DNA of 64,000 bases from Myxosarcina sp. GA_180221_E-2-1-MAG-40_15 (GTDB lineage Bacteria; Cyanobacteriota; Cyanobacteriia; Cyanobacteriales; Xenococcaceae), in contig JAIMKV010000004.1 of the NCBI GenBank assembly GCA_020692205.1, positions 1-64,000 on the forward strand, written 5' to 3'. Of the stretch, positions 28,294 through 29,173 are shown piece after piece (position 1 is the first letter of the stretch; each line of letters starts with the position of its first letter). A program made the position numbers and the translations under genes. The notes under the pieces were generated by a model. That model was not told the origin of the DNA, did not search any database, and saw nothing but the letters and a program-made list of their open reading frames with translations.

Positions 28294-28494
28294 TTAGAAA
28301 TCTATGCCATAGGCAGAACTCAAGCTTCTGCTCATGTTGATAAATTTTTGTGCATCCCAGGAATCTGCTTTCTGCTGAGACTTATCGCCACTTAATCCAG
28401 GACAATAGCCTTGACCCAGATTTTGACTCATCTGAATTCGCTGTTGATTAGTCCAGCCTTGATATTTAGTGGTTACTTTTTTATTAATTGACAT
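28294..28494 (-). CDS. small hypothetical protein (66 residues)
   Basis: I do not recognise this 66-residue, Gln- and Ser-rich protein (MSINKKVTTKYQGWTNQQR ... AYGIDF). It has a strong Shine-Dalgarno sequence (AAAGGAGATAAATT before the ATG), which supports real translation. There are no membrane segments or Cys clusters. It lies convergent with the moaD-like gene. Confidence 0.65.
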   Translation of the reverse strand: MSINKKVTTKYQGWTNQQRIQMSQNLGQGYCPGLSGDKSQQKADSWDAQKFINMSRSLSSAYGIDF

Positions 28495-28708
28495 AATTTA
28501 TCTCCTTTCTGTAGCAAAATATACATTTTGTATATATCTAAATAATAAAACTAAAAGTTATGTAAAGCCAAGGTGATGATGACCGAACTAAATCGGCTAA
28601 TATATTTGCCTGTAAAATCTTGATGTTTAGGCAATTAGGCGCAAAAGTTTCTATCTTTTGGCTAATATTAAATGAAATTCAAAATTGTTTATGATTAAAG
28701 AGTAGGCG

Positions 28709-28813
28709 GAGAATCGTTCATCTCTCTACAGGTCAAGAATTGAGAGACGGAAGTAAGGAAGATGATCGTACCTGAAGGAACGCACCTCAAGCTAAAAACA
28801 GAGGTGAAATGAC
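28709..28813 (+). promoter_or_regulatory. glutamine riboswitch (glnA RNA motif) with Shine-Dalgarno sequestering helix
   Basis: The leader matches the glnA-type glutamine aptamer. P1 is CGTTC (28715-28719) with GAACG (28778-28782); the TCTCTC/GAGAGA stem leads into GACGGAAGTAAGG, the E-loop-like conserved core; CTGAAGGAACGCACC closes the aptamer. Next, CACCTC (28783-28788) is exactly complementary to the Shine-Dalgarno GAGGTG (28801-28806), eight bases before the ATG. Formation of the aptamer should compete with this helix, so glutamine would raise translation. The mechanism is inferred from these pairings. Confidence 0.85.
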
Positions 28814-29173
28814 ATGGAATTAATTTATCGGGGTATTAAATACAAAAGCAATCAAGCAAATCGCGATTTTGCTACCCATAAAAAGTTGCCAATAACATAT
28901 TGTAAAAAATTAGTTAAAACAGCAACAAATAACAAGTTCCCAATTATTAAATATTGTAAACAGCTATTTTCTTACCAAAAGCCAGCAGTTTGCGATCCAT
29001 TGGAATTTTTACATCAGCATCAGAGTCAGCTGTTAGAAAATTGTTGGCAATTAGATGTGCTGCAACAGCTCAATTTGTGTTGGGAAACAACTTTAAAAAT
29101 AGAGCTAGAGAAAAACTTGCCAAGTAATCCTCCTGTTCAACTTAAATATCGTGGCGTTACTTACTATATTTAA
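28814..29173 (+). CDS. DUF4278 protein under a glutamine riboswitch
   Basis: The 119-residue protein begins MELIYRGIKYKSNQ and ends LKYRGVTYYI. Both ends carry the YRG-x-x-Y motif of DUF4278, a short cyanobacterial domain of unknown role. The middle is Lys- and Cys-containing with a helical LHQHQSQLLENCWQLDVLQQL stretch. It does not resemble the Arg-rich inhibitors IF7 or IF17, which are the known riboswitch-controlled glutamine synthetase inactivators. The glutamine riboswitch directly upstream suggests a job in nitrogen balance, perhaps binding an enzyme of glutamine or nitrogen metabolism. Confidence 0.8.
   Translation: MELIYRGIKYKSNQANRDFATHKKLPITYCKKLVKTATNNKFPIIKYCKQLFSYQKPAVCDPLEFLHQHQSQLLENCWQLDVLQQLNLCWETTLKIELEKNLPSNPPVQLKYRGVTYYI

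What the first reader, a model, noticed from the sequence alone, without database searches (positions are those of the whole stretch)
28709..29173. Glutamine riboswitch controlling a DUF4278 protein instead of a known glutamine synthetase regulator
The leader matches the glnA-type glutamine aptamer core (GACGGAAGTAAGG and GAAGGAACGCACC). The CACCTC segment at the end of the aptamer is exactly complementary to the GAGGTG Shine-Dalgarno sequence, giving a clear OFF helix that glutamine binding should compete with. Known cyanobacterial targets of this riboswitch include glnA and the inactivating factor gene gifB. The gene here encodes an unrelated protein with a YRG motif at each end, so it may be a new nitrogen-control factor.
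Basis: partly seen in the sequence, partly recalled or inferred. Interest (0 to 1): 0.8.

Follow-up and report, generated by a model that had tools for sequence, protein, structure and literature searches.

The report
Glutamine riboswitch before split DUF4278 gene
A cyanobacterium carries a glutamine-sensing RNA switch in front of a small protein related to the known brakes on glutamine synthetase; this relative has another module in place of the known inhibitory half and sits in a genome in which the enzyme those brakes act on was not found, so it may brake something else in nitrogen use.

Summary
Window 28713-28786 is a type 1 glutamine riboswitch (RF01739, 57 bits, cut-off 35), with a CACCTC/GAGGTG helix over the Shine-Dalgarno that covaries at one pair among relatives. 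It precedes an intact 119-aa ORF with DUF4278 at both ends. The variant is what is new. Nineteen of 170 aptamer-linked genes, all in the window's family, have DUF4278 interrupted by an unnamed module that also occurs alone elsewhere, and no IF7-like half. None has an NtcA site within 120 nt, against 31 of 48 IF17-like genes. The genome shows no IF7/IF17 and no type I GS, only GSIII; neither GS type is common to all carriers. Nine of the 19 lie tail-to-tail with a guanidine-cluster symporter, urea-transporter or hydantoinase gene; the window copy does not. Best reading: a glutamine-induced protein brake on nitrogen use other than type I GS, perhaps organic-nitrogen uptake. No target is shown.

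The parts
28713..28786 (+). type 1 glutamine riboswitch aptamer (RF01739)
   Evidence: cmscan 57.0 bits, gathering score 35
28783..28788 (+). CACCTC, 5' arm of the proposed OFF helix (anti-Shine-Dalgarno), overlapping the aptamer's last four positions
   Evidence: position; C[AG]CCTC in 18 of 19 leaders of the family, CATCTC in one; covariation
28801..28806 (+). GAGGTG, Shine-Dalgarno and 3' arm of the OFF helix
   Evidence: AGGTG invariant in 19 of 19 leaders; hairpin -6.9 kcal/mol
28814..29173 (+). 119-aa basic protein (pI 9.3), split-DUF4278 family
   Evidence: ORF; PF14105; 19-member alignment; pI
28814..28879 (+). N-terminal DUF4278 piece, MELIYRG (residues 1-22)
   Evidence: Pfam stretch 1-22; M1 L3 Y5 R6 G7 Y10 invariant in 19 of 19
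28937..29116 (+). inserted module (residues 42-101), related to stand-alone cyanobacterial proteins; boundaries approximate
   Evidence: hits of the family alignment to stand-alone proteins; helices 44-52, 62-77, 80-101 in a low-confidence model
29108..29170 (+). C-terminal DUF4278 piece, LKYRGVTYYI
   Evidence: PF14105 positions 38-57 at 29108-29164, E 0.139 on its own; K-Y-R-G and T-Y-Y invariant in 19 of 19

Best explanation
A translational-ON type 1 glutamine riboswitch controls a small basic protein derived from the DUF4278 half of the IF17 kind. With little glutamine the CACCTC end of the aptamer pairs with the Shine-Dalgarno and translation is off; glutamine binding should free it, so the protein is made when nitrogen is in surplus. 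The protein has no IF7-like GS-binding half; between its first and last DUF4278 strands it carries another, probably helical, module. I think it works like the IFs, PirA and NirP1 (a small nitrogen-controlled protein that blocks a partner), but its partner is not type I GS, which was not found in this genome. My best guess for the family is uptake or breakdown of organic nitrogen (guanidine, urea, purines), from gene neighbourhood. Step probabilities: aptamer real 0.98; ON switch by SD release 0.85; product a nitrogen-surplus brake 0.55; target in organic-nitrogen use 0.3. Sequence and neighbourhood facts are shown; ligand response, inhibition and target are inferred.
For: Aptamer and anti-SD helix; published ON behaviour of this aptamer class on gifB (PMC6316151, passages). 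Family of 19 with invariant end and module residues, pI 9.3 to 9.96. Own genome: four aptamers, no IF7-like match, no type I GS above cut-off, one GSIII. IF and GSI are both absent in 11 and both present in 29 of 40 relatives (sets taken), yet the split family is in 8 of those 11. It also occurs without a GSIII match (G398, G399, G401, G408), so neither GS type is common to all 16 genomes that carry it. Of the 19 aptamer-linked members, 7 are tail-to-tail with a symporter (same family as in the guanidine cluster), 1 with urtE, and 1 overlaps hydantoinase A. Precedents of that layout: gifA-glnA in Nostocales (PMC11288750, passages) and, here, IF17-like genes and glnA in 2 of 48 loci.
Against: The window copy has no such neighbour (upstream a PALP-family enzyme and a ThiS-family protein; downstream, 335 nt away and convergent, pyruvate kinase by eye) and is a long branch (1.5 changes per column), so family-level inference may not hold for it. 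The symporter is near a gene of this kind in only 8 of its 16 copies in 40 relatives, and 5 of the 16 carrier genomes lack a full copy (G395 has a fragment near the gene). The neighbourhoods are related by descent (label clustered, 5 of 500 shuffles as low) and may amount to few events. Lack of an NtcA site is not special to this family: IF7-like genes have it in only 2 of 16 and the two-helix membrane peptides in 0 of 23. Two relatives have no aptamer match (L240, L246). Promoter scan no better than shuffles. Structure models too poor to use.
Confidence: 0.5

Rival explanations
1. The split-DUF4278 protein inactivates type III GS (GlnN), the only GS found in this genome, in place of IF7/IF17 that act on type I GS.
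For: Own genome and all 13 genomes of its genus in the sample have GSIII; GSI and IFs are absent together; PMC6316151 section 2.8 (read) reports rapid ammonium-dependent inactivation of GSIII by an unknown mechanism in GSIII-only Pseudanabaena 6903.
Against: The family also occurs in four genomes without a GSIII match, one with three copies, and in genomes that have GSI and IFs; no full-length member was found in GSI-less G386 (81% complete), G388 and G409.
Confidence: 0.15
2. It is a glutamine-induced partner of a general nitrogen regulator such as PII, as PirA is, not of any transporter or GS.
For: Basic small protein under nitrogen-surplus control, like PirA (PMC8092223, passages); distribution independent of GS type and of the symporter.
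Against: No kinship with a known PII partner was found; none was specifically searched for.
Confidence: 0.2
3. The transcript matters more than the protein: a 3' extension acts as antisense on the convergent transporter gene, as gifA does on glnA in Nostoc.
For: Last codons 26 to 118 nt apart from the symporter in seven loci, 52 nt from urtE; precedent PMC11288750 (passages).
Against: A translational switch would not by itself set transcript level; end and module residues are invariant in 19 of 19; the window copy has a 335-nt gap and an unrelated neighbour.
Confidence: 0.08
4. The window copy is a decaying paralogue that keeps its leader by inertia.
For: Long branch, no middle YRG, no close orthologue seen in the genus.
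Against: Open frame intact, all 20 invariant residues kept, aptamer as strong as that of the C57 paralogue (57.0 and 57.1 bits).
Confidence: 0.12

Closest known systems
gifB / IF17 with its type 1 glutamine riboswitch
   Same: RF01739 leader, SD-sequestering helix, DUF4278 start, small protein
   Different: no IF7-like C-terminal half; unnamed module between the DUF4278 ends; no NtcA site within 120 nt; no type I GS found in the genome
DUF4278 proteins without IF7 half under glutamine riboswitches (e.g. PMM1846, as described in PMC6316151)
   Same: riboswitch plus DUF4278 without an IF7 half
   Different: PMM1846 is described as a 7-kDa protein with a glutamine riboswitch and an NtcA motif; here the domain is split by a module and no near NtcA site was found
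PirA and NirP1 small protein regulators
   Same: proposed mode of action only: a small nitrogen-controlled protein that blocks a partner (inferred)
   Different: no homology was found in the searches made; the passages read describe NtcA control of both, not a riboswitch in front of them

Membership tests
type 1 glutamine riboswitch (RF01739) | covariance-model match above the gathering score | tested here: met
   57.0 bits against 35
type 1 glutamine riboswitch (RF01739) | expression platform on the ribosome-binding site | tested here: met
   CACCTC/GAGGTG, covarying at one pair in 109 of 170 leaders; sequence evidence only, kinship not corrected for
type 1 glutamine riboswitch (RF01739) | binds L-glutamine and changes translation | not testable with these tools
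   needs in-line probing and reporters
GS inactivating factor IF17 (gifB) | N-terminal DUF4278 | tested here: inconclusive
   DUF4278 above cut-off but in two end pieces
GS inactivating factor IF17 (gifB) | C-terminal IF7-like half with conserved arginines | tested here: not met
   no NCBIfam match to the protein; IF7 alignment and NF052599 find nothing in the genome, while NF052599 matches the IF17-like protein of L017 at E 2.4e-11, under its own cut-off
GS inactivating factor IF17 (gifB) | NtcA site over the promoter | tested here: not met
   0 of 19 of the family within 120 nt against 31 of 48 IF17-like; 3 of 19 within 300 nt, the window's at -202
GS inactivating factor IF17 (gifB) | inactivates type I GS | tested here: not met
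   no GlnA match above cut-off in the genome, listed as 99.99% complete in 131 contigs; binding itself not testable
DUF4278 (PF14105) | Pfam gathering score | tested here: met
   33.3 against 25.3 bits

The most novel reading that the evidence does not exclude
In a lineage of Pleurocapsales that discarded type I GS and its inactivating factors, the glutamine riboswitch was rewired to a new class of DUF4278-module proteins that shut off organic-nitrogen acquisition (guanidine, urea, purines) when glutamine is plentiful: feedback control of scavenging by glutamine sensing without NtcA.
Probability: 0.25. Interest if true: 0.8.

Novelty: new variant of a known kind. Interest (0 to 1): 0.58.

Why it matters
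In the papers seen, glutamine riboswitches of cultured cyanobacteria are tied to GS control or to DUF4278 genes of unknown role. Here they persist in 9 of 11 genomes of the family in which neither type I GS nor IF was found, so the regulon is wider than GS control. PMC6316151 leaves open whether GSIII-only cyanobacteria use protein inactivators (section 2.8); these strains give a short list of candidates to test, and the gene neighbourhood gives a rival target.

Tried and rejected
Aptamer as chance match: rejected. Stem length as evidence for the OFF helix: rejected, shuffles reach it in 469 of 850; a first covariation count used a faulty pattern and was replaced. Kinship of the insert with the stand-alone YLERC proteins (class E): only 19 columns at 73% probability, not claimed. 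Structure: two AlphaFold2 jobs, pLDDT 61.7 and 60.7, pTM 0.25 and 0.26; no fold search was run on them. Solved relatives of the family: none at E 1. Sigma-70 scan: 4 sites, 3.6 expected. Tail-to-tail neighbours of the other classes as a control: 74 opposite-strand neighbours outside classes D and I; families matched by two or more include GS twice and a carbamoyltransferase domain twice, no symporter, but only 25 of 82 families are shown, so single cases may be hidden; none of them clustered with the symporter. Class counts rest on my own regular expressions and an automatic choice of start; at least three rows under 'other' are IF17-like (L025, L044, L058). Of the matches, fourteen below the cut-off were not followed; three below it (G385:C71, G114:C43, G400:C131) were.

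In-print check: searches. Two papers name DUF4278; nothing in the listings or passages seen describes a split form or a link to guanidine genes. The primary paper (Klahn 2018, PMC6212724) is not held, so its target tables were not seen and could contain such genes. Of PMC6316151 I saw passages and section 2.8; of PMC11288750, PMC8092223, PMC7760959, PMC10907346 and PMC2864571 passages; of the others listings only.

Full report
What is there. The window holds one match to RF01739, at 28713-28786 on the + strand, 57.0 bits with a gathering score of 35. The quoted core strings are at 28746 and 28774. CACCTC (28783-28788) begins within the last four positions of the aptamer match and is complementary to GAGGTG (28801-28806), 7 nt before the ATG at 28814. 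The ORF 28814-29173 has 119 codons and matches PF14105 DUF4278 above its cut-off, mainly by its first 22 residues, with a second stretch at the other end. No NCBIfam model matches it.

Is the OFF helix real. In 19 leaders of this family AGGTG is invariant and the other arm is C[AG]CCTC in 18 and CATCTC in one. Of 170 aptamer-linked leaders, 109 have A or G at the second position of the 5' arm and T or C opposite: A-T 18, G-C 83, G-T 7, A-C 1 (Fisher 5e-14, not corrected for kinship; without this family A-T 6, G-C 83, G-T 0, A-C 1). Stem length by itself is not informative. That glutamine opens the helix is taken from the published gifB switch (PMC6316151, passages), not shown here.

The same review says that these aptamers are mainly found with DUF4278 genes and that DUF4278 is the N-terminal half of IF17. 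So the association is known. The variant described next was not met in the papers seen.

The variant. I followed 170 aptamer matches from a phylum sample (62 of 386 genomes over the cut-off) and from 40 relatives (32 of 40) to the next ORF. Rough classes by my own patterns: IF17-like 48, stand-alone IF7-like 16, DUF4278 only 23, the window's kind (D) 19, other groups 50 (3 YLERC, 11 short LCW membrane peptides, 23 two-helix membrane peptides, 5 FDFxLWA, 2 MRLFKSFS, 6 DUF4278 with another C-terminus), unsorted 14. The window's kind starts with M[KE]LxYRG, in 13 of 19 has a second YRG, and ends in KYRG[VIL]TYY plus one or two residues; 20 columns are invariant in 19 of 19, seven of them in the middle part (F42 P43 Y47 L51 P62 F65 W90 of the window protein). 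The window copy and five others lack the middle YRG. All 19 lie in the window's own family. The middle part matches stand-alone proteins of other cyanobacteria: 41 of 386 genomes, the own one included, have a match to the family alignment at E 1e-5 or better, mostly to this part only; 29 of these other matches were read as frames, mostly of 62-95 codons between stops, and several matches run over stop codons. Two representatives have no Pfam or NCBIfam match above cut-off. A further relative in the own genome, on C58, has the module and a C-terminal YRG and no aptamer match near it.

Control region. A perfect GTAN8TAC lies within 120 nt upstream of the aptamer in 31 of 48 IF17-like, 13 of 22 DUF4278-only and 6 of 6 class K genes, but in 0 of 19 of the window's kind (0.7 expected by shuffling), 0 of 23 two-helix membrane peptides and only 2 of 16 IF7-like genes. 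Within 300 nt it is 3 of 19; the window's is at -202, 17 nt from the start of the divergent small ORF. So these genes seem to have glutamine sensing without the usual NtcA site, which they share with some other classes.

The genome. Four RF01739 matches: two genes of this kind (window, C57), a 50-aa gene on C51 and a 40-aa membrane peptide on C2. No IF7-like match by alignment or NF052599. The only hit to TIGR00653 (GlnA) is E 1.3e-13 in a 777-aa frame that also holds GSIII_N at E 5.8e-75. Over 40 relatives IF and GSI are both absent in 11 and both present in 29. Several of the 11 have other GS-family proteins below the cut-off of 429 bits, the best at 288; the own genome has none beyond the GSIII. 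The window's kind is in 8 of the 11 and in 8 of 14 GSI-bearing genomes of the family, and in four genomes without a GSIII match. Hence neither GS is common to all that carry it. GSIII-only cyanobacteria are known: Pseudanabaena 6903 and Synechococcus RS9917, the first with ammonium-dependent inactivation of GSIII by an unknown mechanism (PMC6316151 section 2.8, read).

Neighbourhood. At the C57 paralogue the order is guanidine-I riboswitch, arginase-family enzyme, methyltransferase-like and GST-like proteins (by eye), HypA, HypB, a symporter, then the gene of interest tail-to-tail, 19 nt between the stop codons. The enzyme passes the agmatinase cut-off narrowly (176.2 against 174.3 bits) and is in Pfam Arginase; that it is a guanidine hydrolase is my inference from the riboswitch and HypA/HypB. 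The symporter matches the sodium/solute family at E 8.7e-34, under that model's cut-off. Orthologues of it are tail-to-tail in six more loci (L331, L338, L342, L343, L345, L240; last codons 41 to 118 nt apart), as a fragment about 302 nt away in G395, and at 1.6-1.7 kb in two. In L331, L338 and L345 no HypA/HypB clusters with it in the stretch taken. In G398 the partner is UrtE (52 nt; TIGR03410 E 3.2e-98), with UrtD, UrtA and UreG nearby; in G393 the gene follows an 8-oxoguanine deaminase and its end overlaps hydantoinase A. Of the 19 aptamer-linked genes 9 are tail-to-tail with such genes (7 symporter, 1 UrtE, 1 hydantoinase) and 10 are not, two of these having the symporter at 1.6-1.7 kb. 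From the symporter's side: 16 copies in 15 of 40 genomes, 8 near a gene of this kind (6 within 120 nt), 8 not. The own C51 gene is also tail-to-tail, 34 nt, with a polar-amino-acid ABC ATPase whose best model is GlnQ, under its cut-off. The layout resembles gifA-glnA of Nostocales, where the overlap acts as antisense (PMC11288750, passages), and IF17-like genes beside glnA in two genomes here. The window copy shows none of this: pyruvate kinase (by eye) is convergent 335 nt away.

Reading. I take the gene for a glutamine-induced protein brake, related to IF17 by its DUF4278 ends but not a member of the IFs. The target is not type I GS in this genome, if the assembly is complete. Organic-nitrogen uptake is the best-supported guess for the family, GSIII or PII the main rivals. 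For the window copy, a long branch, even that is weaker.

Named kin. The search for related loci returned ten relatives, labelled Pleurocapsa, Xenococcus, Waterburya, Xenococcaceae and Pleurocapsales, eight of ten with RF01739. The window's own strain was not identified.

Noticed in passing
L004:1600-1719 (own genome C2) and ten other loci of class F: Glutamine riboswitches before 33-53 aa membrane peptides with an LCW motif; the own one has no Pfam or NCBIfam match.
   Followed up: partly
e.g. L119:499-714; 23 loci of class G: Glutamine riboswitches before membrane peptides of about 72 aa, 0 of 23 with a perfect NtcA site within 120 nt.
   Followed up: partly
L003:1316-1468 (own genome C51): Glutamine riboswitch before a 50-aa protein (DUF1858 E 0.0016, under cut-off), tail-to-tail with a GlnQ-like ABC ATPase.
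   Followed up: partly
G169:C2:1066802-1067466 (L080, L082, L095): Three glutamine aptamers about 300 nt apart, each before its own 56-aa DUF4278 gene.
   Followed up: no
L179 (G398:C4:194001-194074): A 41-bit glutamine aptamer match upstream of what looks by eye like petC (Rieske protein).
   Followed up: no
upstream of aptamers of the family, e.g. L001, L132, L159: By eye, a TTGATTATCAT-like element roughly 18-30 nt before the aptamer in many members (printout); unexplained.
   Followed up: no
window 28294-28524 (-): A 66-aa ORF on the other strand with a GTAN8TAC at 28511, just before its start.
   Followed up: no
L246 (Pleurocapsa CCALA 161) and L240: Two members of the family without an aptamer match whose leaders still show the anti-SD and SD arms.
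   Followed up: partly
L008, L009 (own genome): Two plain DUF4278 genes at places where one search lists no glutamine aptamer.
   Followed up: partly
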